Source: a virus
Length of the DNA: 64,000 bases
IMG/VR virus record: IMGVR_UViG_3300008120_000241
Span: 1-64,000 of that record
Direction: 5' to 3' (one strand)
The notes under the pieces: model-generated
Databases searched by the model: none
What the model was told of the DNA's origin: nothing
The model's input: only the letters and a program-made list of their open reading frames with translations
Part shown: positions 221-61,575 of the stretch, in pieces
Layout of the letters: every line of letters begins with the position of its first letter
How positions within the stretch are numbered: position 1 is the stretch's first letter
Position numbers and translations under genes: made by a program

Positions 221-589
221 ATGAATCTACAAGAAAACATAAGAAGAATATTAAAAGAAGAAACAGAAGGTATGTCACCACTAGAGCAGACAGTTGCTGA
301 TTTTATTAATATGAATCTATCTGAATATGATTTACCAGAAGACTTTGATAGAGTTGCCGTAGATATATTTGATAATGAATATGATAGAAAAGAGTGTGTA
401 GTGACCATATTATTTGAGAAACCATTTAATTTAAAAGATTCAGATAGAATGCATGATATAATGAATGAAATAAAAAAAGAAATCAAAAAATATTTTGGTG
501 ATACTTTTTGGTATATAAAATTAGGAACATCGACGGTAGATGTTTATAACAGTACCAAAGATTGGTACACCAAAAGAAAGAATAAATAA
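221..589 (+). CDS. Leader A cargo protein, 122 aa, unknown function
   Basis: Residues 1-14 are MNLQENIRRILKEE, the first copy of leader A. This is a basic amphipathic helix ending in L-K-E, a [LIVF]-x-E site of the kind T4-like prohead proteases cut; the cut would fall after Glu13. The remaining ~109 residues are acidic alpha/beta sequence with no recognisable domain. The stop overlaps the ATG of the next gene by one base. Packaging into the capsid is inferred from the leader; the activity of the mature part is unknown. Confidence 0.75.
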   Translation: MNLQENIRRILKEETEGMSPLEQTVADFINMNLSEYDLPEDFDRVAVDIFDNEYDRKECVVTILFEKPFNLKDSDRMHDIMNEIKKEIKKYFGDTFWYIKLGTSTVDVYNSTKDWYTKRKNK

Positions 590-878
590 TGGAAGACATT
601 AAAATCCTTCACCTAAAAAGTAACGCACAAAAATTGGAAACTTGGGTTGCCATGTTAAATGGTGAAAAAAAATTAAATTCCTTGATGCTTGGGTTCATCA
701 CGACCATAGAAGAAAGGGAATCTACCGAATGTTGTGGGACACAAGGTGGGAATATGTTCAAGAAAATTATAAAGGGTGGATTGCCTTTGCCTGGTGTAAA
801 CCATCATCACTACCATTACTATTAGAAAAAGATTTCACAACCGGTGAAACTTGTACCTACGTTGAAAGAGAAATTTAA
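589..878 (+). pseudogene. GNAT-like acetyltransferase with a frame break in an A8 tract
   Basis: The frame opened by the ATG at 589 gives 78 residues ending in a nonsense-like His/Tyr-rich tail. Switching frame in the run of eight A at about 665-672 gives a sensible continuation to a stop at 876-878. It contains DAWVHHDHRRKGIYRMLWD, the V-x-x-x-x-R-x-x-G-I acetyl-CoA binding signature of GNAT acetyltransferases, and then an LLLEKDF tail like the family C-terminus. Together the two frames make about 95 residues, short for a GNAT domain, so it may also be truncated. A homopolymer sequencing error, a real frameshift mutation or programmed slippage are all possible. Confidence 0.6.
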
Positions 879-926
879 TCACAATTAATTTAGAAAAATC
901 AAATATTTTTTTGTATATTTACCATT

Positions 927-1196
927 ATGGTTAGTGGTACTATTTTAGAATATTTTGAAGATATAATGAGGGGTGGTTTCAGAGAGGATGTGCAAAAATA
1001 TTTAAGTTTTTTTAATGGTGATTGCGGACGTTTACTTATGACCGTCACAATTCCTTATGACTTACTTTCAAACATGAACAATAAACATTTTGATGATTAT
1101 ATGGTGCGGTTTACGAATTCAATAAATGAAAGAATGGTGAGGTATGGTTTTGAACTTAATAAAGATTACGTAATTGATGTAATAAGAACAGAATGA
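927..1196 (+). CDS. Small unknown protein, 89 aa, near-leaderless
   Basis: The protein is a mixed alpha/beta polypeptide with no leader A-D and no known motif. A promoter-like TATATTTA at 914-921 lies five bases before the ATG, which fixes the start and predicts an mRNA with almost no 5' leader. The stop overlaps the next ATG (ATGA). Its length and pattern (N-terminal helix, central hydrophobic strand, C-terminal GFELNKDYVIDV) resemble the following gene product (GMRVNEDYKIET), suggesting tandem duplication and divergence. Function unknown. Confidence 0.7.
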   Translation: MVSGTILEYFEDIMRGGFREDVQKYLSFFNGDCGRLLMTVTIPYDLLSNMNNKHFDDYMVRFTNSINERMVRYGFELNKDYVIDVIRTE

Positions 1197-1456
1197 ACCC
1201 AAAGTTAGAATATATCGAAGAATTGGTTAGAAATAATATTAGTGATGAACTTAAACATACATTAAACTTCACACTAAATGAAAATAATGTAGTACTAATC
1301 AATGTTAAATATGAAACATTAGATATGGTGCCTAGTGTATGGGGACAAATTATACGTAGAAGAATAGTTGAAACACTTTACTCATTTGGTATGAGAGTAA
1401 ATGAAGATTACAAAATAGAAACAGAAATATCATGGAAAAACACCTTACGACAATAG
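1193..1456 (+). CDS. Small unknown protein, 87 aa, probable paralogue of the preceding gene
   Basis: It starts within the stop of the upstream gene (ATGA overlap) and overlaps the next gene by 25 bases, so translation is probably coupled. The C-terminal YSFGMRVNEDYKIET aligns by eye with YGFELNKDYVIDV of the upstream product. No leader, membrane segment or catalytic motif is visible. Confidence 0.65.
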   Translation: MNPKLEYIEELVRNNISDELKHTLNFTLNENNVVLINVKYETLDMVPSVWGQIIRRRIVETLYSFGMRVNEDYKIETEISWKNTLRQ

Positions 1457-1845
1457 AATACATCAAAGACATACTTGAAGAAGATGATTTAGATATTACT
1501 TTTAAAAAAGGCAAATACGTCATTAAATTTATAATTGACGCTAAAAATAGCATGACTATGGATGCCATTGCAAAACTTAGAGGTATTGGTAAAAAAACTA
1601 TGACAGAATCAAAACTATTAACTTATTTTCCAAAGGAGTTATTTAAAATAGAATTGGAAACCATAAACAAACCAAAACCAAAACTAATGGTGATGGACTC
1701 GTTCAGTAGTGATGTTTACAAAAAGTTACTTGAACAACGTGTAATTCATAGACCAATAAACGTAAACACAACTGATACGGCATTGAATAATATTAATGGG
1801 TCTAATTATAGTACTACAGGAATAAATTTAAACCATCTAATTTAA
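1432..1845 (+). CDS. Unknown protein, 137 aa, possible divergent leader
   Basis: The N-terminus (EYIKDILEEDD) places an I-L-E-E motif about 15 residues in. That resembles a degenerate leader A with an [LIVF]-x-E site, but the basic residues of the standard leader are missing, so this is uncertain. The middle is a basic, hydrophobic alpha/beta region (GKYVIKFIIDA, LRGIGKKTM); the C-terminal 40 residues are Asn/Thr-rich and look disordered. Starts 25 bases inside the preceding gene. Function unknown. Confidence 0.6.
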   Translation: MEKHLTTIEYIKDILEEDDLDITFKKGKYVIKFIIDAKNSMTMDAIAKLRGIGKKTMTESKLLTYFPKELFKIELETINKPKPKLMVMDSFSSDVYKKLLEQRVIHRPINVNTTDTALNNINGSNYSTTGINLNHLI

Positions 1846-1867
1846 AGTAGAACATATTTATAATAAT

Positions 1868-2824
1868 ATGCCATTAAAACAATCCATAAGAAAAATATTA
1901 AGGGAAGAAATCAACCCAAACAAACCAGACTTATACGAATTTGCCAAGTGGGGATTAACCGGTGAATATGAATATAGCGGATGTTGGGACGACAACGATT
2001 TGGATGGAGCGATTGAATGTGCGGTTGATGATTTTGAACAATTTTTAAATGAACCATACCCAACAGGGTTAGGTAATATACCAAAAAATCCAATTATATA
2101 CAGATTAATAAAACTAAATGAGATTAAAGATTTAAACAAAAACAATCTGGGAAAGAGTTGGTTCTCAAATCCAAATCAAATTAAGAATCCAGAGTTTTTT
2201 GATATGTTGGAATATTTAAAACCAGGACCAAACAATAAGGTATTTTTGATAAAAGGAAAAACAACAATTAATAACATTGATTTAAAAAGAACATTATGGG
2301 AAAGATCAACCCAATGGTGGGAAAATGAAATTGTAATTAAGGATGACACCAATATTGATATTTTGGACATAAAGGAATTAACAATGGATAAATACTTAAA
2401 GGAATCCAACAATAAGTTAAAGGAAAATGTCAATCCAATAATGGACTTAATTAATGAATTTGGTATAATGGCCGCAATGAAATTCACCGGGTTGACTTAT
2501 AAAGAAATAGAATCAAAAACAAATTTAACAAGAGATTACAAAATTCAATTCTTAAAAGATTTAATAGTTAGTTTATCTGACGATGAGGATGAAATATCAC
2601 TTGAATATTGGTTGGATCAACCAATCACTTATAAAATAGATGATGACGGTCAACATATACTTGAACGAATCCAGGTGGTTGATGATGAAGATTTAATATT
2701 AACAATTTATGTGTATGATATGGATGAATATGGTGAAATGAGGGATTTAAATTTTCTGTATAATATGGAGAATGAAGATATAACCGATGATGGATTGGAT
2801 ACTATAATTGAACATTTAATATGA
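1868..2824 (+). CDS. Leader A protein with an ADP-ribosyltransferase-like R-S-E pattern
   Basis: Leader A (MPLKQSIRKILREE) precedes a 300-residue protein. Around residues 75-165 the order IIYRLIK, GKSWFSNP, WENEIVI matches the Arg / Ser-x-x-Ser / Glu-x-Glu triad of R-S-E-type mono-ADP-ribosyltransferases, in which the second Glu is catalytic. T4 packages a comparable enzyme, Alt, in its capsid and injects it to modify host RNA polymerase. The C-terminal ~120 residues are acidic and unrecognised. ATATTTATAATAATATG gives the start. The last bases overlap the next gene (ATGA). The enzyme family is inferred from motif order only; a structure prediction would decide. Confidence 0.6.
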   Translation: MPLKQSIRKILREEINPNKPDLYEFAKWGLTGEYEYSGCWDDNDLDGAIECAVDDFEQFLNEPYPTGLGNIPKNPIIYRLIKLNEIKDLNKNNLGKSWFSNPNQIKNPEFFDMLEYLKPGPNNKVFLIKGKTTINNIDLKRTLWERSTQWWENEIVIKDDTNIDILDIKELTMDKYLKESNNKLKENVNPIMDLINEFGIMAAMKFTGLTYKEIESKTNLTRDYKIQFLKDLIVSLSDDEDEISLEYWLDQPITYKIDDDGQHILERIQVVDDEDLILTIYVYDMDEYGEMRDLNFLYNMENEDITDDGLDTIIEHLI

Positions 2825-3384
2825 ACTTAAAACAATCCATAAGAAGAATATTAAAGGAAGAAACGTCAATTAACCAAAAGGTTAAGGACATAATTTTAAA
2901 TGGAACTGATTTTGATGATTGGATTAAAGCGGTACAACTTCAATATGGGGATGTTGTCCCATTATATCACGCAACAACCGAACAGACATCAAAATTAATT
3001 GATAAGGAAGGATTCAAGTTAGTTGATGGAAAAAACTATAAGTCATTTTCAAACGAACCCATTTTATATTTCCAGATTGGAAAATCGGATTATGTGTCAA
3101 CAAACAGACCGGTATTATATAGATTGGATGTTCCGATTGAATTTTTATACAATGCCGAAATTGACAATGATGGTCCGGACATAAGTGATGAAGAACTTTT
3201 TAAATATGTGGATGAAACGGATTGGGATGAATTACCTTATGATATTAGGGACGCCATAATTTATTTTATATGGAATGATTTCAAACTTGACGGAACCGAA
3301 ATACTTATAAGTGATAGGTTTATGGATGATCCGAGTGAAGATATCTTCAAAGGGTTAAAACCGGTTAAAGTAAAGGACAATTAA
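2821..3384 (+). CDS. Leader A protein with an ART-like / phosphotransferase-like YHATT motif
   Basis: Leader A (MNLKQSIRRILKEE) occupies residues 1-14. Residues ~47-65 read VVPLYHATTEQTSKLIDKE, the Y-H-[GA]-T-T ... I-x-x-x-G-F pattern that opens many ADP-ribosyltransferase and KptA-like folds, followed by VLYRLDVP. Together with its immediate upstream neighbour this suggests two different packaged ART-like effectors. The C-terminal half is very acidic. It is translationally coupled to the upstream gene. The fold is plausible; substrate and activity are unknown. Confidence 0.55.
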   Translation: MNLKQSIRRILKEETSINQKVKDIILNGTDFDDWIKAVQLQYGDVVPLYHATTEQTSKLIDKEGFKLVDGKNYKSFSNEPILYFQIGKSDYVSTNRPVLYRLDVPIEFLYNAEIDNDGPDISDEELFKYVDETDWDELPYDIRDAIIYFIWNDFKLDGTEILISDRFMDDPSEDIFKGLKPVKVKDN

Positions 3385-3385
3385 G

Positions 3386-3715
3386 ATGAATAACGAATTA
3401 GTGAAAAACAAATCGGACCTGATGGTTAACTGGCAATCAAAACTAATGATTGTCACATCAATAATTAATGATTTCTATCCGGATTTTAATTCTCAAAACG
3501 TATTTGTCAGAGATTCTGCCGGAGTTATAACGTATAGTGATAAAAAAACAACCGAAGAATATGCTTGGTTCTATCCTTCAACCAAAAAATTATATTTTGA
3601 TTGGGATATCTATCACGAGTTACAAAAATATTTGGGAGACGATTTGATGCCTTATTTAATAATGTGGTTCAATAAAGAATTTAAAACGGATGTCAAAAGA
3701 ATAAGCGCCGAATAG
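3386..3715 (+). CDS. Unknown protein, 109 aa, leaderless paralogue of the next gene
   Basis: The protein has FYPDFNSQNVFVRD near residue 30 and a C-terminal YLIMWFNKEFKTDVKRIS. These correspond to LYPNFNENDVKIDV and YVIDWFNNEFGTNVEYIS in the next gene, so the two are paralogues. This copy lacks leader A: its N-terminus is MNNELVKNKSDLMVNWQ. If the leader sends proteins to the capsid, this copy would stay in the infected cell. Function unknown. Confidence 0.7.
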   Translation: MNNELVKNKSDLMVNWQSKLMIVTSIINDFYPDFNSQNVFVRDSAGVITYSDKKTTEEYAWFYPSTKKLYFDWDIYHELQKYLGDDLMPYLIMWFNKEFKTDVKRISAE

Positions 3716-3717
3716 AT

Positions 3718-4062
3718 ATGGGTTTACAAGAGAATATAATAAAAATATTAAAAGAGGATTTGAATAAAAAGGTTGAAAAAATGACCAAAATTGTTGGATT
3801 ATTCATTAATGAGTTATATCCAAATTTCAATGAGAATGATGTTAAAATTGATGTGTTTGATGATGATGTGAATTATATTGAAACATATTATGATCCGGTA
3901 ACACAATTCTTTTTTGCCAGATACGATGATAGACTGAGAGAATTAATCTTAAATACGGAAATATTGGAAACATTGGAAGGTTATTTTGGGGGTGATATGG
4001 AATATGTTATTGATTGGTTTAATAATGAATTTGGCACCAACGTGGAATATATAAGTAGTTAG
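3718..4062 (+). CDS. Leader A paralogue of the preceding gene, 114 aa
   Basis: The leader is the variant MGLQENIIKILKED. The body matches the upstream gene product in length and in the LYPNFN and WFNNEF blocks. It starts two bases after the upstream stop. The pair is a natural comparison of the same domain with and without leader. Function unknown. Confidence 0.75.
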   Translation: MGLQENIIKILKEDLNKKVEKMTKIVGLFINELYPNFNENDVKIDVFDDDVNYIETYYDPVTQFFFARYDDRLRELILNTEILETLEGYFGGDMEYVIDWFNNEFGTNVEYISS

Positions 4063-4064
4063 TT

Positions 4065-4136
4065 ATGAAATTCAAGGATGAAAATAAAACCAAACAATTG
4101 GTTGCGGGGATTATGTCAAGTGAATATATTTATTAA
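4065..4136 (+). pseudogene. Truncated duplicate of the 5911 gene
   Basis: The open frame of 23 codons starts MKFKDENKTKQLV and ends after MSSEYIY. The DNA matches 5911-5975 almost base for base, after which the copies diverge and this one hits TAA. It is a 5' fragment left by recombination, with the promoter-like TATTTATTAATT of the next gene taking over at the break point. A functional 23-residue peptide is unlikely. Confidence 0.7.
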
Positions 4137-4140
4137 TTAT

Positions 4141-4926
4141 ATGAACCCACAAGAAAAAATAAGAAGAATTTTAAGGGAAGAAGGATTTATACCCCTACCA
4201 ATCAGAAGAAGAGTAACTTCAAGTGATTTAGAAGAGGCATTTTATTATGCTTTAGAAACAAATGTCACATCTATGGATAACCCAAATTCTGTGATATACA
4301 AAGAAAAAAAACCATCATTATGGGTATTTTCAAAGTTCGTTATTGATGATATGGTTACTCTTTTAGAACAAGAATATTTTACTAATGACAACCGAATTTA
4401 TTTTAGTGATACCGAAGAGGATGACAAAACTTATCACAAAAAAATTAGACAACCACTACTTAGATATTATGGTAAAAGAATAAAAGAAAAGTACGATGAG
4501 ATTATGTCATCAAACGATGAAGAATTAATACAAGAATCCATAAGAAGAATTTTAAGGGAAGAAGTGGAACGAAATTATATTTTTGTTAGAACTGATGATT
4601 TTGATAATACTGGTACTGTAAGGGAATTACCTTACGATGGTATACATTGTTGGTGTATATATGAAGATGACTTTGACAAATACATAGATGAGCTTGAATT
4701 GTGGGGTGGAAGTAGAAAAAAAGTTAGGATAGTTGATGGTGAAAATTATAAAAAATACGCAACCAATTATAAAATGGCTCACGATTATGTTATGGGTGAT
4801 AGCGATGAAATTCCAAAATTAGAAAAATTTAATCCCGATGAACATATTATGAAATTTATAAAACAGGGTAAAAAATCTATGTTAAATTATGTTGCCAATA
4901 TGAAATATCAAATAATATTAATATGA
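4141..4926 (+). CDS. Two-part cargo protein with an N-terminal and an internal leader A
   Basis: The start is the ATG at 4141, directly after TATTTATTAATTAT. Residues 1-14 are MNPQEKIRRILREE. A second copy, LIQESIRRILREE, lies near residue 130, so the protein reads leader - cargo 1 (about 115 residues) - leader - cargo 2 (about 115 residues). If both sites are cut, one translation product yields two mature proteins. Neither cargo is recognised; cargo 2 has an unusual HCWCIYEDDFDKYIDE stretch. It probably arose by deletion between adjacent leader genes. The stop overlaps the next ATG. Confidence 0.75.
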   Translation: MNPQEKIRRILREEGFIPLPIRRRVTSSDLEEAFYYALETNVTSMDNPNSVIYKEKKPSLWVFSKFVIDDMVTLLEQEYFTNDNRIYFSDTEEDDKTYHKKIRQPLLRYYGKRIKEKYDEIMSSNDEELIQESIRRILREEVERNYIFVRTDDFDNTGTVRELPYDGIHCWCIYEDDFDKYIDELELWGGSRKKVRIVDGENYKKYATNYKMAHDYVMGDSDEIPKLEKFNPDEHIMKFIKQGKKSMLNYVANMKYQIILI

Positions 4927-5357
4927 ACCTACAAGAAAACATAAGAAGAATAATAAGGGAAGAATCAGATAAAGATATTTTAATTGATGGTTTGTATGAC
5001 CCAATATATGAAGAAAACGGGATTGTTCTATTTAATGAACCAAGACATTTAAAGATGTATTCTAAATTTGGCATTAAAAAATCAAATGTAATAAGTGGTA
5101 AAGAATTTAATAAAAAATATGTTGACTTTGATAATAAAAAACTTCACAAAGTGTTATACAAGGAAGGTATGACTTTGGGTGGTAATTTAGGTGAAGGTAA
5201 ATATTGGTGTTCCACTGAATATTGTTTAAGTGTTTATTTAGGGGAAACACACCAAAGCAGTGAATATTCCGAATACGTTAAAGGTGTGGTTGATTCTAAA
5301 TTGGGGGATGACCTAAAAATTTTGGTAAAGAAATATATTTCCGATGATTTATGGTAA
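4923..5357 (+). CDS. Leader A cargo protein, 144 aa, unknown function
   Basis: The leader is MNLQENIRRIIREES, with I-R-E as the predicted cut site. The mature part contains GGNLGEGKYWCSTEYCLSVY, a Gly-rich loop with two Cys that could be a ligand-binding or catalytic site, but I do not recognise the family. It overlaps the preceding gene by four bases. Confidence 0.7.
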   Translation: MNLQENIRRIIREESDKDILIDGLYDPIYEENGIVLFNEPRHLKMYSKFGIKKSNVISGKEFNKKYVDFDNKKLHKVLYKEGMTLGGNLGEGKYWCSTEYCLSVYLGETHQSSEYSEYVKGVVDSKLGDDLKILVKKYISDDLW

Positions 5358-5371
5358 AAAATGATATTAAT

Positions 5372-5887
5372 ATGAACCTACAAGAATCCATAAGAAGAAT
5401 ATTAAGGGAATATTTGGAAGAAGCCAGGTTGTCCGATCTTTTAAAGGTTACCGGTAATAAAAGTGAACTACATAAATACATTGAGAAAGAAAAATCCAAG
5501 GAGTTTGAAATAGATAGGGAATTACCGACACAATTAACATTAAAAAAAAGATATAACAACAAAAAGATAAAAGTTTATTTTAATTGGTTTGACAATTCAA
5601 AACATGATTTAAAAAAAAGGATTAAAGAAAGGACTAACTTTAAAACAATTACAGAATTTGCTGATGTTTTTAATCAAGTTATTAATTATGTTTTACCGGA
5701 TGAACTGGGTGTAAATATTAGTGAAAATGGAAGATACGCCATTAATTTAAGTGAATATAACATTACAATCATATTTTCAATTAATCTGGATGATTTTGAT
5801 AACCAAAAAGTAACAATTAACGTTATTACCATACTACCAAAAAGTCAAATTGACGAAAAAAATATAATACAATTTTTTGTATATTAG
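5372..5887 (+). CDS. Leader A cargo protein, 171 aa, unknown function
   Basis: I chose the ATG at 5372 because MNLQESIRRILREY follows it directly and the upstream in-frame ATG would add a non-conserved extension. This copy has Tyr where the others have the second Glu; the L-R-E site is kept. The body is Lys-rich alpha/beta (NKKIKVYFNWFDNSKHD, INVITILPKSQ). Function unknown. Confidence 0.7.
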   Translation: MNLQESIRRILREYLEEARLSDLLKVTGNKSELHKYIEKEKSKEFEIDRELPTQLTLKKRYNNKKIKVYFNWFDNSKHDLKKRIKERTNFKTITEFADVFNQVINYVLPDELGVNISENGRYAINLSEYNITIIFSINLDDFDNQKVTINVITILPKSQIDEKNIIQFFVY

Positions 5888-5898
5888 AATAATTGTTG

Positions 5899-5906
5899 TA
5901 TATTTG
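5899..5906 (+). promoter_or_regulatory. Bacteroidota-type -7 box, TATATTTG
   Basis: It matches the TAnnTTTG consensus used by the Bacteroidota primary sigma factor. A TTTG lies 19 bases upstream at 5876-5879, as expected for the -33 element. Only four bases separate the box from the ATG at 5911. Confidence 0.65.
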
Positions 5907-5910
5907 TCAT

Positions 5911-6165
5911 ATGAAATTCAAGGACGAAAATAAAACCAAACAATTGGTTGTGGAGATTATGTCAAGTGAATATATTGATATTGTTTCTGGTAAGGGTTTA
6001 TTTTTTAATGACAATATAGTTTATGATAAGAATTTCTCACACATCACAAACGATAGTGAGTACCCACTTATAGAAGAAAAAGTAAAATCAATTGTTAAAT
6101 TAATAAATGAAGACCCAACTCTGGTCCATAAAGATTTGGAGGATGAATTATGGTATATGGTTTAA
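5911..6165 (+). CDS. Small unknown protein, 84 aa, near-leaderless
   Basis: The start is set by the -7 box at 5899-5906. The protein (MKFKDENKTKQLVVEIMSS...) carries no leader and is acidic in its C-terminal half. A truncated copy lies at 4065-4136. It is followed by a clear terminator, so it is probably its own transcript. Function unknown. Confidence 0.7.
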   Translation: MKFKDENKTKQLVVEIMSSEYIDIVSGKGLFFNDNIVYDKNFSHITNDSEYPLIEEKVKSIVKLINEDPTLVHKDLEDELWYMV

Positions 6166-6173
6166 AAAGGTAA

Positions 6174-6204
6174 TCCCACCCCAAAAGAGTGGGGTTTTTT
6201 ATTT
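6174..6204 (+). terminator. Intrinsic terminator
   Basis: ACCCC/GGGGT stem around AAAAGAGT, followed by six T. It follows the 5911 gene. Confidence 0.7.
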
Positions 6205-6225
6205 TTAATGGTATTTATTAATTAT

Positions 6226-6575
6226 ATGAACCTACAAGAAAACATAAGAAGAATATTAAGGGAAGAACTAAATAATAGGGGTGATTGTAATATTATGTAT
6301 GTCCCAGAACAACTATCTAAATTATATAGGTTTTCAAATCTGTGGGATATGGTGGTTAATGAAATTGATGAATTGATAGAAGTTTCTCAATTAGAAAAAG
6401 AATTATTACCAAAAGACATTACAGTATATTCAGTTCAAGAAATTATACATAATAGATGGGCATCATAGATTATGTTATGATAGAATAAATAATAGAGATT
6501 CCTATGTTTATATCTTTGATAAAGATGACAGTCAAATTGTTGATTGTATATTTTACGGTATAGGAGATTGTTAAT
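6226..6575 (+). pseudogene. Leader A ParB-like protein with a frame break
   Basis: The ATG at 6226 opens MNLQENIRRILREE, but this frame stops at 6468 (ending IIHNRWAS). In the next frame the same DNA reads LYIIDGHHRLCYDRIN and continues to TAA at 6573-6575. V/I-I-D-G-H-H-R is the signature of ParB/sulfiredoxin-like N domains, and the upstream LLPKDITVY fits the preceding strand of that fold. A one-base change near 6431-6443 restores about 115 residues. Such domains bind or hydrolyse CTP or DNA in other families. The break could be a sequencing error or a real mutation. Confidence 0.6.
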
Positions 6576-7046
6576 ATGAACCTACAAGAATCCATAAGAA
6601 GAATATTAAGGGAAGAGTCACTAAAACACTCTTTAATTGATGAGATTAAAACTGAGGGGTGGTTTAATGTTTCACAATATGTGGGTGGTGATGAAGAACT
6701 TAAAAAGATTACCGAAATACATAACTCATACCAGTTTATGAAATTGTTTTTAAATATAACCCCAAAACAAAGTGATGAGAGACCTGAAATGATATTATAT
6801 AAAAACGAAATGGGGGTCAATCTTTTTATTCATGTGTTTAATAATAATCTTAATGAGTATATGGTTTACTTCAATGGTGATATAACATATAGACCATTAC
6901 AATTTTTTTTAGAAACGAGACCATTAGGGGAAAGAAATGAGTTTTTAAACAAATGGTTAAGAAAAAATTACAAAATAAATGTAGCTGACCGCAACATAGT
7001 TTGGTTTGATCCCAAGGAGGACAGTTATTTAACGTATTTAAATTAA
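6576..7046 (+). CDS. Leader A cargo protein, 156 aa, with conserved post-leader block
   Basis: The leader MNLQESIRRILREES is followed by LKHSLIDEI, a second conserved block shared with the products at 7049 and 7944. The C-terminal FLNKWLRKNYKINVADRNIVW matches NWLKNKFNITIPSTRIT in the 7944 product, so the two are paralogues. The ATG follows the upstream TAA directly. Function unknown. Confidence 0.75.
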   Translation: MNLQESIRRILREESLKHSLIDEIKTEGWFNVSQYVGGDEELKKITEIHNSYQFMKLFLNITPKQSDERPEMILYKNEMGVNLFIHVFNNNLNEYMVYFNGDITYRPLQFFLETRPLGERNEFLNKWLRKNYKINVADRNIVWFDPKEDSYLTYLN

Positions 7047-7048
7047 AG

Positions 7049-7942
7049 ATGAAGATAAAATCAATTAAGGTTATCAAAGGAAAAAATAGATGGAGCGATT
7101 CCAAAGATAAACTTATTCATATGGTTCTAGATTTAGGTGAATTTGAAGAAAAACCATCAAATAAAATAAAAGGGTTTTATGAAAGAATAAAAAAACATTT
7201 ACCTTCATTAAAAAGTCATAGATGTTCAGAAGGAAAACCAGGTGGATTTTTAAATAGAATTAAAGAAGGAACGTGGATGGGACACATTATAGAACATGTT
7301 GCTTTAGAATTACAGACATTGGCGGGTTATGATACAGGATGGGGAAGAACAAGAGGTGTTAAAGGTCAAAAAGGTGTATATAATGTAGTATTTAATTATG
7401 AAGATGAAGAATGTGGTAAAATGGCTGCAAAAGAGGCATATAACGTTGTTAAAGATATTATAAATGATAAAGACCCACAAATAGATAATATAGTTAAAAA
7501 ACTAAAACCAAAAAAACAAATTAGGGAATCCATAAGAAGAATATTAAACGAGGAGTCACTAAAACAAACCCTCTTGGACGAGATAATGAGATCGGGAATA
7601 AGAGACACGGCAAGTATAATGAGTGTGGATGTGAAAGAACTTTTAGATATGGTGGGGATTACAGGAACAAAAGAAGATATGATATTTCTTATTAAATCAA
7701 TAATGAAAAATGAGGCTAAAGAAAAATTTGATTACTGTAGTTATAATATTGTACCATCACCACATTATATTACATTATATGTTTATATACCTAAACCATT
7801 ACCCGAACACGAAGGTGTATGGGCTTATGATCAATCGGTACGTTATAGAGTGGAAGAATTAATAGGTCATTTGTTATCCAAATTAGGTGGTGGATTAATC
7901 AGAGGACATTATTTATATGTATATAATACAGGAGATTGTTAA
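7049..7942 (+). CDS. Cyanophycin-synthetase N-domain fused to an internal leader A cargo
   Basis: Residues 1-140 closely follow the N-terminal domain of cyanophycin synthetase: LDLGEFEEKPSNKIKGFYER, HRCSEGKPGGFLNR, EGTWMGHIIEHVALELQTLA, and a final YNVVFNYEDEE. The HxxEH in GHIIEHVALE is kept; this domain has been reported to bind the polymer and to hold a cryptic hydrolytic site. The ATP-grasp and Mur-ligase-like domains that make cyanophycin are absent. Around residue 157 an internal leader, IRESIRRILNEESLKQTLLDE, opens a second part resembling its neighbours. If cut, the two parts separate, and the N-domain would remain with the leader rather than as mature cargo. Confidence 0.75.
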   Translation: MKIKSIKVIKGKNRWSDSKDKLIHMVLDLGEFEEKPSNKIKGFYERIKKHLPSLKSHRCSEGKPGGFLNRIKEGTWMGHIIEHVALELQTLAGYDTGWGRTRGVKGQKGVYNVVFNYEDEECGKMAAKEAYNVVKDIINDKDPQIDNIVKKLKPKKQIRESIRRILNEESLKQTLLDEIMRSGIRDTASIMSVDVKELLDMVGITGTKEDMIFLIKSIMKNEAKEKFDYCSYNIVPSPHYITLYVYIPKPLPEHEGVWAYDQSVRYRVEELIGHLLSKLGGGLIRGHYLYVYNTGDC

Positions 7943-7943
7943 T

Positions 7944-8390
7944 ATGAATCTACAAGAAAACATAAGAAGAATATTAAGGGAAGAGTCACTAAAACAAACT
8001 TTAATTGATGAGGTTAAAAATAACGGTGTACAAGAAACCGCCGAACTTGTGGGAGGAATAAGTAATCTTATAGGTATATTAGAAATAGAAACACCAATGG
8101 ATTTCTTAAACATATATAATGATTTGGAAATTGTGGAAAGTGAAGAAAAACCAGATTATTATTTATTCAGACATAACAAAAATGATAACGTTATAATGTA
8201 CAACAAAAAAACTGATTTTATGTTATATAATCAAGATAAATTCTGGCCAGTATTTACGATTCACTTTAAAATGAACCACTATGACATTAATGATATGATT
8301 TCAAATTGGTTAAAAAATAAGTTCAACATAACGATACCTAGTACAAGAATAACAAACGTACCACAATCACAATATACAAGATTATCTTAA
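7944..8390 (+). CDS. Leader A cargo protein, 148 aa, paralogue of the 6576 gene
   Basis: MNLQENIRRILREES is followed by LKQTLIDEV, as in the two preceding genes. The sequence upstream (GGAGATTGTTAATATG) is the same as that before the 6576 gene, so the junction was duplicated with the gene. It is the last gene of the leader A array. Function unknown. Confidence 0.75.
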   Translation: MNLQENIRRILREESLKQTLIDEVKNNGVQETAELVGGISNLIGILEIETPMDFLNIYNDLEIVESEEKPDYYLFRHNKNDNVIMYNKKTDFMLYNQDKFWPVFTIHFKMNHYDINDMISNWLKNKFNITIPSTRITNVPQSQYTRLS

Positions 8391-27889: not shown

Positions 27890-30800
27890 ATGAAAGATTT
27901 GATTTCAGAAATACAGACAATGAGAAATAGGATGGGTTTAAAAAACGTATCTACACCAAAAATATTGAGTGAAGCATCAATACCTACCCCATTATGGAAT
28001 AAACTGGCTAAGTATTTTGATGAACTAATACTCGGCAGTGAAAAATCATTAGATGATTTGGCAAAAAAAGGAGTAATCACAAATGAAGAATTACTTTGGT
28101 TAAAGAAGAACGCTTCAGAAATTTCTAGAAAGGCAAAAAATATTGTAGACCCAAATACAAACGAGTATATATTAAAAAAGTTTAAAACCATCACACAAAA
28201 TGTCACAGAAGATGAACTTGAAAAATTATCAAAAATAGGTTTTGAAACTTGGTTAGAAAAAAATCCAAAGACACTAGAACCCATTGACGCTTTAACTGAT
28301 AAAATTTCTAAATTAATAGAAGAATTTTCAAGTACTGGTAAAATACAAAATGATCCGGAATTAACTAAATACTTAAATAATGGTGGTACCTGGGAGGATT
28401 TGTTCAAAAGTACTTTAGAAAGTGAAGGCTATAAAGATGAGTTATTGGATTTTGCCCTGGAAAGATTTAAAAAAAATATTCAAACAAAAATAGTTAAAAC
28501 CGAACCTTTAAATGTGGAAAATATCATAGAAGATAAAATTAATAAACTTTTAAATGACCCAACGTATAAAGATTTAAATAGTTTAGAGAAGTTAAAAAAA
28601 ATTAATACATTAAAAAAAGAATTAATAGACGAGTTAAAACTCAAACAACAAGATAAAACACTTTCTGCTAAAATTTCAGAAAAGGAAATTGAAAAATTAG
28701 TAGATGATAAGTTGGAATCCCTTTCTGGTACTATTGAGACATTTTACACAAAAAAGGGTGTAACTGATTTTTTATTATCGGTTAAGGGTGTCGGTAACTT
28801 ACTTGATGAATTTATATCTCTTGGTCAATTATTTAATTCTACCGCCGAAAAAAACATAACAACATTAAAAAATGATATTTCAGATATCATTGTGTTAATT
28901 GATAGGTCTGATTTAACTGAAAATTACTATAGAGAGGTTGCAAATAAAATAAAAGCACTTTCAAGTAATGCTAGAAAAACAAAAGAATCTGTTACTAAAT
29001 TTTGGGATGATTTAAAGAAATTAATTACTGAAGCATTTCCGAATGACCCTAAAAAAGCTCAAGACATAATAAATAAAATAGGGGGGCCAAACAAACTAGA
29101 TGAGTTTTTCACTAAAACTAACCAATACGTTGAGGTTGGTGATAGAATTAAGGAGACGTGGCAAAAAATTTTAGACGCTTTTGGTAAATTTAAAAGTCTA
29201 AATAAAGAAGTTGGAGATATGAGTAGTAATGTCTTAAAATTTGGTGAAGGTCCGGCAAAAAGATGGGTTAATTTTATTGCCAGTGGGAGTTTTACATCAT
29301 TTAAAGAATGGACACAAAGATTAGCACAGAGAAGAAAATTTTTGTTTGTAGGGAAAGAGGTACAAGGATTTAGTTGGAAGTCTTATTTTGATATGTATTG
29401 TAGGATATGGTTTGTTACTAATCTTGCGGTACCTATGGTTACTTCTTTCTTGTCCGCAGTAGGGTTGTGGTTTTTAACGGCTGTTGGTAAATTAACCGGT
29501 ATTGGTGATGAGACAAAATATTTTACTGAAAATAAAAACAAATCTATAGGTGAACTTTGGGGTGAGTTTTATAGTGATTCAATAAAATCTAGTTTAATAC
29601 CTTTTATTGATGATTATAATGGAAAAATGGAAGGTAGTTTCCCACAAAATATTGAACAATGGGGTAAATGGGCTACTGATTTTGTAGGTGCAATAATCCC
29701 TTTCAATACAAAAATTGATGATATTGCTGATTTTATATTTAACACACCTGAATACCTATCAAAAGCGGAACAAATTAAAAACGAACAAGTTAAAAAAGGT
29801 GAGGATACACTTGAAAAGGTTTCAGACAAATTAAAAGGAAAGGATAAAGTGTTTGCGGATAAAAACAACGAAGAGTTAACCAAAACAAACAATAATATTA
29901 AAGTAAAAGAATATAAAAATACAATAGTAGATGGATTAAACAATAGGTATTATATTTTCACAAATAAAGAAATAGGTACCATGCCATCAACAGAAGAAAG
30001 GGTAAAATTATTTAATAAAATAAAATATGAGGGTAAACCTGGAACATTTGAACAAGATAAATTTTTTATTACAATAAATGGTAAAAAATATAAATTTGTT
30101 GATAACACATTCTATGAAGACCCAACCACAGGAAAACAAGGAAACTGGAAAGACCTAGGTGGAAGACTTTACGAAAACAAAAATAACATTATGAAAGATT
30201 TACTTAAAAAAATCATTTTGGAAGAGGAAGAAGAAAGAACTCTTAAAATGAAAGATTGGGATGAAATATTCACATTCCAAAAGATGGATGAAAAAAATCC
30301 AGGAAAATACACTGAGGTAAAACTTAAAATGGATTCTGTTATGGATAGAATGCCTCATTGGAGAAAGAAATATAAAAAGGAATGTGAAGATATGGATAAT
30401 TGTGATGATGATGGTGAAGATGATTCATTTGTTAGAGCAGTTATTGATACACACCCAGAAGTCGTTAGAATCCTATTTACAAAAGGTTTAGCTCATTTAA
30501 CTTCCAGTGAAGAACAAGAAGATCTAAATGAAGGTTTACACAAATTATTGGCCGTTATTAGAGAAGCTAAAAGTGTTGAGGTTGAGGTTTGGTCTGTTTA
30601 CAGACACCCATCAAGTCCGGATAAAATCTGGTCATTGGTTAAAGGTGATTACAAACCAAAGGAACTAGCTTCAATGGATGTTAAAATGCAACAATCACCA
30701 CAAAATTCAGTAGAACCAAAAAAAAACTCACTTGATGAGTTAAAAAAAAAAGAATCTGAAGCAATAAAAATATTGTCAACAGATGAAAAAAAAGGTTTAA

Positions 30801-32247: not shown

Positions 32248-35200
32248 ATGTCAAACAAAAGAATATCCGAATTACCCTATATTGATCAAACGAAAATATC
32301 TGGTAATACTTTGGTTCCACTAGTAACATATTATAGTGCGGTTACTGGAACTACAGTCCATACATATGTTGATGACTTTAAGGACTACATTTTAAGTGGA
32401 GTATCTGGATTAACAGAAATATACGTAACTGGCGGTACTTATTCGGCAAATACAATTACTTTTACAAACAATACTGGAGGAACATTTACTGTAACGGGTA
32501 TTACAGTAACCGGAACTACGATAATGGTTGGTGATTATCTCCCTCTAAGTGGTGGGACCGTTACGGGATCAACGTCTTTTACGTCTGGGTTAAATTCAAA
32601 TATAATTTCAGCAACAACTTATCAGAATTTACCAATAAGTGGATTAACCGCTGGTAATAACATTAATATAAGTGGTTCAAATGGTAATTTCACAATATCC
32701 GTTACTGGAATAACAAGTGGTACTACTTTTACTGGAAATACATCAGCCACTTGCATAAATGACTTATATGTAAGTAATTTACACGGATGTTCACCAATAA
32801 CAATTCATGATAGTATACAATTTACTGGATCAACAGCATCTGGATTATTATCCTATGCTGAAGGATATCAAACAACAGCATATGGTGATTATTCTCACTC
32901 TGAAGGTAGACAGACAACGGCATCTGGTGATTATTCTCACGCTGAAGGTAGTGACACAACAGCATCTGGTGAATATTCTCACGCTGAAGGTTATAATACA
33001 CAAACTGGAAAATACGGAGCATACTTATCTGGACCAATAACAAGTGGTACCATAACTTTAAATTCAAGTTACGGTAACGTAACACCTAATTTTACATCTG
33101 GTAATACTATTGTTATTGATGATAGTGATTTTAATAGTAATATTGGAAGGTCAAATTATACAATATCCGCGGTTACTTTTTCTTCACCAAATACGATAAT
33201 TTATCTAAATCAAACAGGTACAACTTGTACCGGTAACGCGATTATTGGTAATATAAGTAATTTTTCATTATGGAACGGTGATCAAATATTAAGAGGTGAT
33301 TACTCCCACGCTCAAGGTGAAGGAACAAAATCCATCGGTATTTCATCATCTGCTAGTGGTTATTACACTATCGCATTTGGAAATTATTCAAGTACTAGTG
33401 GTGAGTACACAATTGCGTTAGGAAATTATTCTCACGCTGAAGGTAGAGCAACAACGACAATTAGAAATTATTCTCACGCTGAAGGCAGTACAACAACCGC
33501 ATCTGGATATTATTCTCACGCCGAAGGTATTCAGACAACGGCATCTGGATTATATTCTCACGCCGAAGGTGGTCAAACAGTAACTATAGGTCAATATTCT
33601 CACGCTGAAGGCGGTGAAACTACCGCCGTCGGTATCAGTACCCATGCTGAAGGAAAATCAACAATGGCATATGGTGTGTATTCACACGCCGAAGGTAGTG
33701 GAACAACGACATATGGTGTGTATTCACACGCTGAAGGAAAATCAACAACAACAATAGGTGGTCATTCACACGCTGAAGGTATTGGAACAACGGCATTGGG
33801 TCAAAGTTCACACGCTGAAGGTATTCAGACAACTTCTGTTGGTAATGGTTCTCACGCTGAAGGTAATTACTCAGTAGCCATAGGTAGTGCTTCTCACGCT
33901 GAAGGTGATTATACAACGGCATCTGGAAATTATTCTCACGCTGAAGGTTCATCAACAACAGCGTCCGGATATGCTTCTCACGCTGAAGGTTCATCTACAA
34001 CAGCATCTGGTGTTGGTTCTCACGCTGAAGGTTATAATACGCAAACTGGAAAATATGGTGCGTATTTATCCGGACCAATAACAAGTGGTATTATAACTTT
34101 AAATTCAAGTTACGGTAACGTAACATCTGGTTTTACATCTGGAAATACAGTTGTTATTGATGATAGAGATTTTAATAATAATATTGGAAGGTCAATGTTT
34201 ACTATTTCAGCGGTGACCTTTTCCTCACCTAATACAATACTATATCTTACATCAACTATTGTAAATTGTTCAGGAAACGCATTAATAGGTAATGTTAGTG
34301 ATTTTAGTTTATGGAACGGTGACCAAATAATAAAAAGTAATTATTCACATAGTGAAGGTAATAATACTTTTACTTTGTGGGAAAATTCTCACGCTGAAGG
34401 TTATAAATCAATAGCACTAACACCCAATTCTCACGCTGAGGGTGGGGATCAACTTAATAACATACCTGGAGGTTATACTATTGGTGTTGGTTCGCATGCT
34501 GAAGGTGTATTAACAACTTCTTTTGGGGGTTGGTCACACGCTGAAGGTTACCAAACGATAAGTTACGGTAATGGTTCACATTCTGAGGGTAAATTAACAA
34601 CCGCATTAGGTAATTTTTCTCATTCCGAAGGTCTTCAAACGACAGCGTCGGGTTATTATTCTCACGCTGAAGGTCTTCAAACGACAGCGTCGGGTTATTA
34701 TTCTCACGCTGAAGGATACAAAACAATAAGTAGTGGTATTGGTTCTCATGCCGAAGGTGGGGATCAACTTAATGACTTAGCTGGAGGTTATGCGATTGGT
34801 GTTGGTTCGCACGCTGAAGGTATAAATACAACTTCTATTGGTATTGGTTCCCATACCGAAGGTAGATCAACCACAGCCTCCGGGTATGGTTCTCACACTG
34901 AAGGTTCTTTAACGTCAGCATCTGCATATTATTCTCATGCTGAAGGTAGAGAAACTACAGCATCTGGAGATTATTCTCATACTGAAGGATATAAAACAAT
35001 TGCAACTGGTAGAAGTTCTCACGCTGAAGGTGGTGATCAAATTAATAATATACCTGGAGGTTATGCGTTAGGTACTGGTTCACATGCTGAAGGTATTAAT
35101 ACTCAAACAGGAAAATACGGAGCATATTTATCTAATCCTATAGTAAATGGTGTTATAACTCTTAATTCAAGTTACGGTAACGTAACATCTGGCTTTACAT

Positions 35201-44316: not shown

Positions 44317-44345
44317 AATATTTTTATAAATTTTTTGTTATGTTA

Positions 44346-44639
44346 TTAGATGGTCTCAATATTATGAGTATTCACATCAGAAACTTTTTCTACTTCAATC
44401 CACGTATCACCTAAAACACATCCAGGTTCACCAAGTATGATTGGATTATTCTTTTTTCTTCTGGATAAAATCTGAGCAATCCTATTAATTTCATCTTCTC
44501 TACCAACAACCGGATCCAACTTACCTTCTTCGGCCAATTTTATTAAGTCTCTTGAAAAGTTATCAAGAACCGGGGTTTTACTTTTGGAATCCGTGTTTTT
44601 ACTTTTGGATTTGTCCATATCATCAAATGACTCAATCAT
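44346..44639 (-). CDS. ClpC/ClpB-like ATPase, N-terminal part ending in a 24-residue intein N-fragment
   Basis: [20 protein letters not shown] is a short Lys/Ser-rich N-terminus in place of the usual Clp N domain. [20 protein letters not shown] and [20 protein letters not shown] follow as in ClpB/ClpC, up to PIILGEPG. Directly after it [17 protein letters not shown] begins: the intein block A with catalytic Cys1. The frame stops 24 residues into the intein. The next gene starts 29 bases later without an SD. The intein interrupts the Walker A GEPG^CGKT, so activity needs trans-splicing. Confidence 0.9.
44349..44420 (-). other. Split intein, N-fragment (24 residues)
   Basis: [20 protein letters not shown] plus four residues. 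An N-fragment this short is the atypical split seen in AceL-TerL and VidaL-type inteins rather than the ~100-residue N-fragment of DnaE. Confidence 0.88.
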
Positions 44640-48737: not shown

Positions 48738-49472
48738 ATGTCATTAACAAGGGAACAAGCCTTATTGGAATATGCAAAATGTGCAAATGATACCGCATAC
48801 GCACTAAAAACATATTTACAAACATATGACAACACACAATCAAAATACGTTCCTTTAGAGTTATTTAACGACCAGGTTACATTAGTTAAGGATTACGACG
48901 AATGTGAGGAAAATATCGCATTAAAATACCGACAAGCAGGAGTATCAACTGTAACCTCAGCTTGGGCTTCAAAAAGACTTGTATTTGCAAGAAAGGAAAA
49001 ACCAGAAAAAATTCTAATTATTGCCAACAAACTTGACACCGCAGTTGAGATGGCAAATAAAGTTAGGGCTTTTGTTGATCAATGGCCAAAATGGATGGGT
49101 GTTGGTTTCTCATCTGAGAAGAACTCACAAAGACACTTTAAATTAACAAATGGTTGTGAAGTTAAAGCGGTTGCAACCTCAAAAGATGCCCTTCGTGGTT
49201 ATACACCAACAATTCTAATATTTGATGAGGCTGCGTATATTGACGCCGATGAAGATTTCTGGTCAGCGTGTATGGCTTCCCTATCAACGGGAGGTAAAGT
49301 TATTGTAATTTCAACACCAAACGGATTTGACCCAATTTATTATTCAATTTATAATCAAGCTATCAAAGGGATGAATGATTTTAGGATTACCGAGATGTAT
49401 TGGTGGCGAGACCCAAGATATTCCAAGGACTTAAAACTTATTAAGTGTGACGATATTGTTCATTATATGTGA
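48738..49472 (+). CDS. terL: Terminase large subunit, ATPase part (frame broken at 49470)
   Basis: LKYRQAGVSTVTSAWASKRL holds the degenerate Walker A of T4 gp17-like terminases, TILIFDEAAYI the Walker B with catalytic Glu, and VIVISTPNGFDP the coupling motif. The protein ends in KCDDIVHYM followed by TGA, where related terminases continue into the linker. Skipping one T at ATG-TGA leads into DTKVRERDFEDIKIKIENGY of the 49447 frame, which restores the usual order. Motor for DNA packaging at the portal. Confidence 0.85.
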   Translation: MSLTREQALLEYAKCANDTAYALKTYLQTYDNTQSKYVPLELFNDQVTLVKDYDECEENIALKYRQAGVSTVTSAWASKRLVFARKEKPEKILIIANKLDTAVEMANKVRAFVDQWPKWMGVGFSSEKNSQRHFKLTNGCEVKAVATSKDALRGYTPTILIFDEAAYIDADEDFWSACMASLSTGGKVIVISTPNGFDPIYYSIYNQAIKGMNDFRITEMYWWRDPRYSKDLKLIKCDDIVHYM

Positions 49473-55234: not shown

Positions 55235-55939
55235 ATGAAAATATTAGGACCAAACGATACGGGTAAGGGGATTCTTGTGGAATGGGATGCTGGAACTATC
55301 AATCCAAATGATACCAGAAATAATCTAGTGATAAAAGAATCTTACGGACAACTTGACCATTCAAAACCTTTTGTGTTTTATGCCACACTTCAAAAATATG
55401 GTGTACCAAATAGAAACGGAAGAATTTACCCTGAGAAAATATTAAAAAGGGAAGCTGAGAAATACAAAGATATGATTAATCGTGGAATGTCAATTTCAGA
55501 ACTTAATCACCCAGAATCATCACTAATTGATCTAGATAGGGTGGCTCATCTTATAACTGATGTATGGTGGGAAGATAATGTATTGATGGGAAAAATTAAA
55601 TTATTAACAACACCCGGATTTCACGAGAGAGGAATTGTATCATCAAAAGGTGATGTTGCCGCTAATATGATGAGACAAGGTGTAACAATGGGGGTATCAT
55701 CAAGAGGTGTTGGTTCTTTGGTTAAAAAAGGGGAACAAAATGAAGTACAAGAAGATTTTGAATTAATTTGTTTTGATTTGGTTTCTTCACCATCCACACC
55801 TGGCGCTTACCTTTATTTAAATCAAGAGGATAGACCAAAATACGAAGAAAAATTATCAGAACAACAAAATATTGATTCAAATTCATTTTCCAAATCAGTT
55901 GACTTAATGAAAAGATTATCCGATTATTTAGGAAAGTAA
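55235..55939 (+). CDS. Prohead protease, gp21-like, 234 aa
   Basis: The catalytic motifs of the herpesvirus/T4-type prohead proteases are visible: SISELNHPESSLIDLDRVAH (His), MGVSSRGVGSL (Ser in G-V-S-S-R-G) and FELICFDLVSSPSTPGAY (acidic residue and S-x-P). GRIYPEKILKREAEKY precedes. It should cleave scaffold, major capsid protein and cargo leaders at [LIVF]-x-E sites and then itself be removed. It lies between portal and scaffold as in T4. Confidence 0.92.
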   Translation: MKILGPNDTGKGILVEWDAGTINPNDTRNNLVIKESYGQLDHSKPFVFYATLQKYGVPNRNGRIYPEKILKREAEKYKDMINRGMSISELNHPESSLIDLDRVAHLITDVWWEDNVLMGKIKLLTTPGFHERGIVSSKGDVAANMMRQGVTMGVSSRGVGSLVKKGEQNEVQEDFELICFDLVSSPSTPGAYLYLNQEDRPKYEEKLSEQQNIDSNSFSKSVDLMKRLSDYLGK

Positions 55940-59754: not shown

Positions 59755-61575
59755 ATGGGAGCATTATTAGATTCAGGTCTTGTTGGTAACATCGGTTTAA
59801 AACACCTTAAAGTTATCAAAGAAGATACTATTAACAAATGGGATAAATTAGGATTCCTAGACGGTCTTAAAGGACATATTAAAGAGAACATGGCTCAATT
59901 ATATGAGAACCAAGCATCTCACCTAATTAACGAAGCGGCAGCAACTGATAGTTCAGGTTCTTTTGAAACTGTAGTATTCCCTATCGTAAGAAGAGTATTC
60001 TCTAAGTTGTTGGCTAACGACATCGTATCAGTACAAGCTATGAACTTACCAATCGGTAAATTGTTCTACTTTGTACCTAAAATCCAAGGGTATACAACTG
60101 CTAACCCTACAACTAACGGTATACATAACCAACCAATTGGAGCACCAGGTTCAACTGCGAACGTAGGTACTGGTTACAATGATGGTACTCAGTATGCTAA
60201 AAATCTTTATGATTTATTTTACGAAGGAGCTGAAGCGGCTTTAGATCCTCCAGGATTGTTTGATTACTCTAAAGGTGAGTGGACAGCGGTTACTGCTTCT
60301 AACGTAACTACTGTTGCTTGGTCTAACGGTACATTGGTTGCTAACGAAACATCTTACGAAACTTCAGGTGTAAGAAAAATGATTATTAAAGTTGGTGGTT
60401 TCGCAAGTGCTGGTGTTGGTAAATTAATCGGACCAGACGGAAACGAAATTGACAACGAATCATTCCTTTCTGACCTTAAAGTTATCAAAGGTGCTGGTTT
60501 AGTTCTTGACCCAGCTTCACCTTGTGCTGTTCCTGCTAACACACCATTATTATTTAGAGTTGTTACTCAACAATATGGTAAAGGAATTGTTGCTCCAACA
60601 TCTACTTCTACTCAAGCCACTTGGCCGGGTACTGGTAATGATGGTTTTTATGACAATATTTGTTCTCAAGACGGATTTATCTATTTAGAAGTTGACCTTT
60701 CTTGTCCTGCATGTGTTGATTGTGGTGCTACTACACTTGATGGTTACACAGGTGCTACTGTTTCTGCTGTAACTTCTGGTACTGCATTTACTGTAACATA
60801 CAAGAGATACAAAGAAATGGAATTTGAAGATAGAATCGGTGAAGTTTCTTTTGACCTTGAGTCAGTTACTGTATCTGTTACAGAAAGAAAACTAAGAGCT
60901 CAATGGTCTCCAGAATTAGCACAAGACGTTTCAGCGTTCCATAACATTGATGCTGAAGCTGAATTGACAGCTTTATTGTCTGAGCAAGTTGCTGCTGAAA
61001 TTGATAGAGAAATCCTAAGAGACCTTAGAAAAGGTGCTGCTTGGAACCTAAGATGGGATTACAACGGATGGAGAAGAATTCAACAAACAACTTCTTACAC
61101 TCAAAAAGATTGGAACCAAACTTTGATTACAGCAATCAACCAATTGTCTGCACAAATCCACAAATCTACTTTAAGAGGTGGTGCAAACTGGATTGTTGTT
61201 TCTTCTGAGGTTTCTGCAATCTTTGATGACCTTGAGTACTTCCACGTATCAAATGCTTCTCCGGAGCAAGATCAATACAACATGGGTATTGAAAGAGTTG
61301 GTACATTAGCAGGAAGATACCAAGTGTATAGAGATCCTTACTTCCCAGCTAACCAAATCCTTATCGGACACAAAGGTTCTTCTTTGTTAGATACTGGATA
61401 TGTTTATGCTCCGTATGTGCCTCTACAATTAACACCTACAATGTATAATCCATTTAATTTTACTCCAATTAAGGGGATTATGACAAGATACGCGAAGAAA
61501 ATGGTGAACAACAGATTTTACGCGAGAATTACTGTTGACGGTGTTAGAACGTTTGATTTACAAGAATTGAGATAA
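59755..61575 (+). CDS. Major capsid protein, gp23-like, 606 aa
   Basis: GSFETVVFPIVRRVFSKLLA, NDIVSVQAMNLPIGKLFYFV and EDRIGEVSFDLESVTVSVTE, KLRAQWSPELAQDVSAFH, NWIVVSSEVSAIFDDLEYF, YAPYVPLQLTPTMYNPFNF match T4 gp23 family blocks. ASHLINEAAATDSSG provides a protease site I-N-E|A after residue 60 (T4 gp23 is cut after residue 65). An insert near 120-370 carries Cys pairs (CPACVDCGA). Codons are more C/T-ended than neighbours, as for highly expressed genes. Confidence 0.93.
   Translation: MGALLDSGLVGNIGLKHLKVIKEDTINKWDKLGFLDGLKGHIKENMAQLYENQASHLINEAAATDSSGSFETVVFPIVRRVFSKLLANDIVSVQAMNLPIGKLFYFVPKIQGYTTANPTTNGIHNQPIGAPGSTANVGTGYNDGTQYAKNLYDLFYEGAEAALDPPGLFDYSKGEWTAVTASNVTTVAWSNGTLVANETSYETSGVRKMIIKVGGFASAGVGKLIGPDGNEIDNESFLSDLKVIKGAGLVLDPASPCAVPANTPLLFRVVTQQYGKGIVAPTSTSTQATWPGTGNDGFYDNICSQDGFIYLEVDLSCPACVDCGATTLDGYTGATVSAVTSGTAFTVTYKRYKEMEFEDRIGEVSFDLESVTVSVTERKLRAQWSPELAQDVSAFHNIDAEAELTALLSEQVAAEIDREILRDLRKGAAWNLRWDYNGWRRIQQTTSYTQKDWNQTLITAINQLSAQIHKSTLRGGANWIVVSSEVSAIFDDLEYFHVSNASPEQDQYNMGIERVGTLAGRYQVYRDPYFPANQILIGHKGSSLLDTGYVYAPYVPLQLTPTMYNPFNFTPIKGIMTRYAKKMVNNRFYARITVDGVRTFDLQELR

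What the first reader, a model, noticed from the sequence alone, without database searches (positions are those of the whole stretch)
4141..4926. Double-leader gene: one frame, two cargos
MNPQEKIRRILREE at residue 1 and LIQESIRRILREE near residue 130. If both sites are cut, the product releases two separate proteins. The 7049 gene (internal leader near residue 157) and the 27890 gene (MKDLLKKIILEEEEE near 765) have the same design, so polyprotein processing may be general here.
Basis: partly seen in the sequence, partly recalled or inferred. Interest (0 to 1): 0.7.

Follow-up and report, generated by a model that had tools for sequence, protein, structure and literature searches.

The report
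Two-cargo phage head polyprotein
A T4-like phage gene joins two small proteins, each behind the same 14-residue packaging-style leader that ends in a likely protease site, and dozens of genes in related uncultured phages have the same bead-on-a-string design with swapped cargos, although cutting between the beads has not been shown.

Summary
The 4141-4926 gene (261 aa) has leaders at residues 1-14 (MNPQEKIRRILREE) and 128-141 (ELIQESIRRILREE). The same ORF is 100% identical in a second contig, so it is not an assembly error. The 7049 and 27890 genes are built the same way. The window is a T4-like myophage with a Gp23 capsid protein and a gp21-type S77 prohead protease.

Across 29 phage stretches I found 143 N-terminal leaders and 39 internal ones scoring above all of 5,580 shuffled proteins. 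There are 36 multi-bead genes, some with three or more beads, and six front beads each occur with two or more different rear beads. Beads joined without a full leader carry a short [ILVM]-N-E-[small] site at 12 of 19 independent junctions (background 2.3%). The same phages' capsid proteins conserve that site (L[IL]NE|A/S), and it fits T4 gp21's L/I-X-E rule.

Best reading: head-targeted cargo polyproteins cut by the prohead protease. Targeting, cutting and packaging are inferred, not shown. The leader is also conserved as DNA well beyond its amino acids, suggesting a recombination handle for shuffling cargos. I rate it a new variant of T4 internal proteins.

The parts
4141..4182 (+). Leader 1, MNPQEKIRRILREE; predicted cut after I-L-R-E (residue 13)
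4183..4521 (+). Cargo A, about 105-113 residues, a mostly helical domain of the family with an RRR motif near its start; 63 domains of this family in the survey
4522..4563 (+). Leader 2 (internal, no Met), ELIQESIRRILREE; predicted cut after I-L-R-E (residue 140)
4564..4926 (+). Cargo B, 120 residues and the stop codon; no homologue found
7049..7513 (+). Front bead of the second fused gene: cyanophycin-synthetase N-terminal-like domain (PF18921)
7514..7555 (+). Internal leader of the 7049 gene, KQIRESIRRILNEE
7556..7942 (+). Rear bead of the 7049 gene, related to standalone leader-gene cargos, including the 7917 gene next door
30191..30235 (+). Internal sister-class leader of the 27890-31144 gene, MKDLLKKIILEEEEE
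221..8390 (+). Array of leader genes (N-terminal leaders in the ORFs starting at 221, 1868, 2821, 3718, 4923, 5351, 6208, 6576 and 7917)
55235..55939 (+). Prohead protease, Peptidase_S77 (T4 gp21 family), the proposed cutter
   Evidence: E=1.6e-22
59755..61575 (+). Major capsid protein (Gp23); predicted propeptide cut LINE|A after residue 60
   Evidence: (E=2.3e-74)

Best explanation
The gene encodes a two-bead polyprotein destined for the phage head. Each bead is a small cargo protein behind a leader that works like the T4 capsid-targeting sequence: a short helix docks the protein in the prohead core, and the phage's own gp21-like S77 protease then cuts after I-L-R-E. Cutting at both sites would release a 13-residue propeptide, cargo A (residues 14-140, keeping most of leader 2 as a tail) and cargo B (141-261), to be packaged and probably injected with the DNA. 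Such polyproteins arise when neighbouring leader genes fuse by losing the stop and start codons between them; the nearly invariant leader DNA then helps cargos to be swapped. Shown here: leaders, protease gene, capsid site, bead swapping, site enrichment at bead junctions, DNA-level conservation. Inferred: targeting, cutting, packaging, injection, and the handle role of the DNA.
For: Gp23 and S77 genes in the window; every surveyed record with Gp23 also has S77. Leaders end in I-L-x-E, which fits the L/I-X-E rule of T4 gp21 (PMC9026906). 34 internal leaders score 20 or more, in genes with beads on both sides. The same front bead occurs with different rears in six families. Leaderless junctions keep [ILVM]NE[SNGAT]: 12 of 19 after removing related ones, background 2.3%; 17 of 18 internal cargo-A-family beads have an [ILVM]xE site just upstream, background 18%. 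The 14 capsid proteins of this type, the window's included, conserve L[IL]NE|[AS]. A relative 67% identical in cargo A is joined by SDNINEG to a different second bead.
Against: No protein-level data. Some sites lie near bead starts in single-bead proteins too (LLNES/LLNET after the leader), so part of the junction enrichment may come from bead N-termini. I chose the site pattern after seeing examples, so the p-values are descriptive. Leader 2 is modelled as a continuation of cargo A's last helix, which could hinder cutting. About half of the 30 records, mostly the shorter ones, showed neither Gp23 nor S77.
Confidence: 0.7

Rival explanations
1. Uncut fusion: leader 1 targets the protein, and leader 2 is a relic or a second docking helix inside one two-domain effector that is never cut there.
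For: Fusions are common in phages; no cleavage data exist; AlphaFold runs cargo A's last helix on through leader 2.
Against: Relics should decay, but many internal leaders keep the full core including the I-L-x-E end. Where the helix is gone, the short protease-type site remains.
Confidence: 0.2
2. Two proteins from one frame by internal translation start: an internal start codon makes a separate second leader protein, besides the long form.
For: The 4141 gene has an in-frame ATG about 7 codons upstream of leader 2; four internal leaders and the 27890 one keep a Met at the leader start.
Against: 18 of 34 strong internal leaders have no ATG, GTG or TTG within 15 codons upstream, and most have lost the leader Met.
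Confidence: 0.06
3. The leader is mainly a DNA element (recombination or homing site) and its protein meaning is secondary.
For: Codon identity between phages is 0.82 in leaders, against 0.51 expected and 0.65 in adjoining cargos. Rare codons CTA, TCC and AGG are nearly fixed and largely kept in internal copies.
Against: It is found in frame, at protein starts or bead junctions. A sister leader class of different sequence ends in the same I-L-x-E motif. Leaderless junctions keep only the peptide site. The DNA role can coexist with the best explanation.
Confidence: 0.04

Closest known systems
T4 internal proteins IPI, IPII, IPIII and Alt, with capsid-targeting sequences cut by gp21
   Same: Short shared N-terminal leader before unrelated small cargos; leader ends in an L/I-X-E site; phage encodes a gp21-family S77 protease; clustered, variable genes (PMC9026906, PMC3012670, PMC12373910).
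   Different: In T4 each protein carries one N-terminal leader (Alt also has a C-terminal cut). Here leaders recur inside one chain between separate beads, and the leader sequence itself is unrelated as far as I could see.
Polyvalent proteins of phages and conjugative elements
   Same: Several domains in one chain, thought to be delivered with the DNA; compared by their authors with viral polyproteins (PMC5512222).
   Different: They rely on embedded peptidase domains and large chains; here the joints are leader copies or short sites fitting the prohead protease, and I found no peptidase domain in the multi-bead proteins scanned.
Processed ejection proteins of giant phages phiKZ and SPN3US
   Same: Head proteins cut by a gp21 relative after a short X-X-E motif, some at several sites (PMC5694885, PMC10052503).
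   Different: Multiple cuts there trim long propeptides; they are not reported to separate two folded cargos.

Membership tests
T4-type capsid-targeted internal head proteins | Short N-terminal leader shared by otherwise unrelated small proteins | tested here: met
   143 N-terminal leaders over many cargo families
T4-type capsid-targeted internal head proteins | Leader ends in a gp21-type site (L/I-X-E) | tested here: met
   I-L-R-E in leaders; rule from PMC9026906
T4-type capsid-targeted internal head proteins | Phage encodes a gp21-family S77 protease and a Gp23 capsid protein with a matching site | tested here: met
T4-type capsid-targeted internal head proteins | Sequence homology of the leader to T4 CTS | not tested
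   No alignment with T4 leaders was made
T4-type capsid-targeted internal head proteins | Protein is in the head, is cut, and is injected | not testable with these tools
   Needs virion proteomics
Polyvalent proteins | Several distinct domains in one chain | tested here: met
   36 genes with two or more beads
Polyvalent proteins | Embedded peptidase or other listed conflict domains | tested here: not met
   No Pfam peptidase or listed conflict domain in the multi-bead proteins scanned

The most novel reading that the evidence does not exclude
A group of uncultured T4-like phages builds head-delivered effector polyproteins with one shared code: a 42-nt leader word that is at once packaging signal, protease cut site and recombination handle, so that cargo cassettes can be appended, fused and swapped between phages.
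Probability: 0.4. Interest if true: 0.82.

Novelty: new variant of a known kind. Interest (0 to 1): 0.64.

Why it matters
If true, it extends T4's one-leader-one-cargo internal proteins to cut-apart polyproteins. It gives a sequence rule (full leader, or [ILV]NE before a small residue) for finding probable head-delivered proteins among genes with no annotated function, and it shows a natural modular way to load several proteins into one phage capsid.

Tried and rejected
Assembly or sequencing error: rejected, the gene is identical in L002. Chance match: rejected. Internal translation start as a general explanation: rejected, 18 of 34 strong internal leaders have no start codon within 15 codons. 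Homologues of cargo B: none found beyond the identical copy. Fold match for the 4141 model: none with E<=0.001. The beads in deposited phages: no match for three multi-bead queries. Host link through bacterial genomes: the only pattern match, in a Verrucomicrobiales MAG, lies among ordinary chromosomal genes, opposite a listed ORF, and looks like chance. Gene conversion inside each genome as the cause of leader DNA conservation: not supported, within- and between-phage codon identity are alike, 0.837 and 0.822. Leader strings in the literature library: none.

Full report
Observation. The 4141-4926 frame encodes 261 residues with a leader at 1-14 (MNPQEKIRRILREE) and a second, Met-less copy at 128-141 (ELIQESIRRILREE). 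The two share a 24-nt identical stretch, with an ATT codon found in no other leader of this class in the window. An independent IMG/VR contig, L002, carries the same ORF with 100% identity. The internal copy scores 36 bits on a matrix built from N-terminal leaders; the best of 5,580 shuffled proteins scores 12.1. The 7049 gene has its leader at 156-169, behind a cyanophycin-synthetase N-terminal-like domain (PF18921, E=1.3e-45) and before a cargo related to standalone leader genes. The 27890 gene has a sister-class leader, MKDLLKKIILEEEEE, at residue 768; of 19 copies of that class in the survey, the other 18 are at or near protein starts.

Genome. The window is the first 64 kb of a 76.8-kb virus record. 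It encodes a Gp23 major capsid protein (E=2.3e-74) and a Peptidase_S77 prohead protease (E=1.6e-22), so it is a T4-like myophage. The top-ranked capsid matches among deposited phages include Microcystis, Flavobacterium and Rhodothermus phages (30-46% identity). A Bacteroidota host is a guess.

Survey. A degenerate DNA pattern for the leader hit 62 stretches in IMG/VR but only one in 84,980 bacterial and archaeal genomes, and that one does not look like a leader gene. I read 28 further stretches of about 20 kb. With the window they give 1,116 ORFs, 143 N-terminal leaders with Met, and 39 internal hits above the shuffled maximum, 34 of them scoring 20 or more. Most internal copies have lost the Met. 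Cutting proteins at leaders gave 36 genes with two or more beads, including chains of three or more (L086:4774-5796, L088:843-2114, L085:1405-3120). Of 54 bead families in these chains, 16 also occur standalone; six front families (F6, F9, F10, F23, F27, F35) are followed by two or more different rear families. The survey was started from contigs that carry the leader DNA, so it says how leaders are arranged in these phages, not how common the system is. Cargo A belongs to a family with 63 domains in the survey. Its closest relative (67% identity, L086:4084-4773) has the same kind of leader and cargo A, then SDNINEG and a different second bead.

Junctions. Where two beads meet without a full leader, 16 of 24 junctions hold [ILVM]NE[SNGAT], against 2.3% of other windows in the same proteins. 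After removing related junctions it is 12 of 19 (binomial p about 1e-15). In the cargo-A family, 17 of 18 internal beads have an [ILVM]xE site followed by a small, polar or acidic residue just upstream, against 18%. The 14 capsid proteins of this type, the window's included, conserve L[IL]NE|[AS] near residue 60; T4 gp23 loses a 65-residue propeptide (PMC5694885). T4 gp21 cuts after L/I-X-E (PMC9026906). So what persists at junctions, when the rest of the leader is gone, is the expected protease site. This is the main argument for cutting. I chose the site pattern after seeing examples, and some beads carry such a site at their own start, so the p-values are descriptive.

DNA level. Codons in the leader are nearly fixed across 28 stretches: codon identity at identical residues is 0.82 between phages, against 0.51 expected from codon usage and 0.65 in the adjoining cargos of the same gene pairs, where the leaders have 0.815. 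Rare codons dominate in N-terminal leaders (L3=CTA 77/98, background 0.10; S6=TCC 50/56, background 0.09; R12=AGG 67/77, background 0.15) and are largely kept in internal copies (11/21, 16/25, 18/23), so start-codon effects alone do not explain it. Part of this set was found with a DNA pattern, but the pattern was degenerate at most of these positions and did not cover N2 and L3. Within-phage identity is not higher than between-phage identity, which argues against simple local gene conversion. Exchange between phages at the leader, or selection on the DNA word itself, remain open.

Rivals. Internal initiation is possible for the 4141 gene (an ATG about 7 codons upstream of leader 2), but 18 of 34 strong internal leaders have no start codon within 15 codons. 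An uncut fusion protein cannot be excluded. AlphaFold folds cargo A with fair to high confidence but runs its last helix on through leader 2, and cargo B is not modelled with confidence. In the 7049 gene the leader lies in a low-confidence stretch after a well-folded front domain.

Comparison. It works like T4 internal proteins: a common leader, unrelated cargos and a gp21-type protease (PMC9026906, PMC3012670, PMC12373910). Polyvalent proteins offer the polyprotein analogy, but with embedded peptidases (PMC5512222). Giant-phage ejection proteins are cut at several sites, to trim propeptides. I found no report of repeated leaders joining separate cargos, and no paper in the library holds these leader strings; the library lacks most subscription journals. 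Verdict: observation confirmed, interpretation likely but unproven, new variant of a known kind.

Noticed in passing
window 4066-4140 and 5893-6165: Just upstream of the 4141 leader lies a truncated copy of the start of the 5911 reading frame (MKFKDENKTKQLV..IMSSEY), a trace of recombination between leader-array neighbours. Read by eye.
   Followed up: no
window 7049-7513; L067-L073: A cyanophycin-synthetase N-terminal-like domain is carried by several of these phages; in L070-L073 it has no leader of this class and ends in a different tail (MSYQEFVEAHKKFTNK) that reminds me of T4 capsid-targeting sequences.
   Followed up: partly
window 50508-53486 and 42097-44639: The portal-like gene and a Clp-like ATPase look interrupted by intein-like inserts (GDTKIATPDG...SHN and [10 protein letters not shown]...SHN); the ATPase is split over two ORFs. 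Judged by eye.
   Followed up: no
window 48738-50466: The terminase large-subunit-like gene is split over two overlapping ORFs, a possible frameshift or a recent break.
   Followed up: no
window 32248-36801: 1,517-aa protein made of dozens of SHAEG-type repeats, probably a fibre or adhesin.
   Followed up: no
window 11822, 37223, 41073, 56725, 57778 and 13307, 21824: Other N-terminal leader-like starts (LTESDLTRIVKRV..E and KIIITEEQYKKL types) share the window with the IRRILREE class; they may be further head-targeting classes.
   Followed up: partly
L002:3599-5491: 630-aa leader protein whose repeated segments are separated by QINES, NINES and RITEN linkers, upstream of the window in the sister contig.
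   Followed up: partly
L118 (contig G002): Contig G002 carries two different Gp23 genes and two S77 genes, so it may be chimeric or hold two phage head modules.
   Followed up: no
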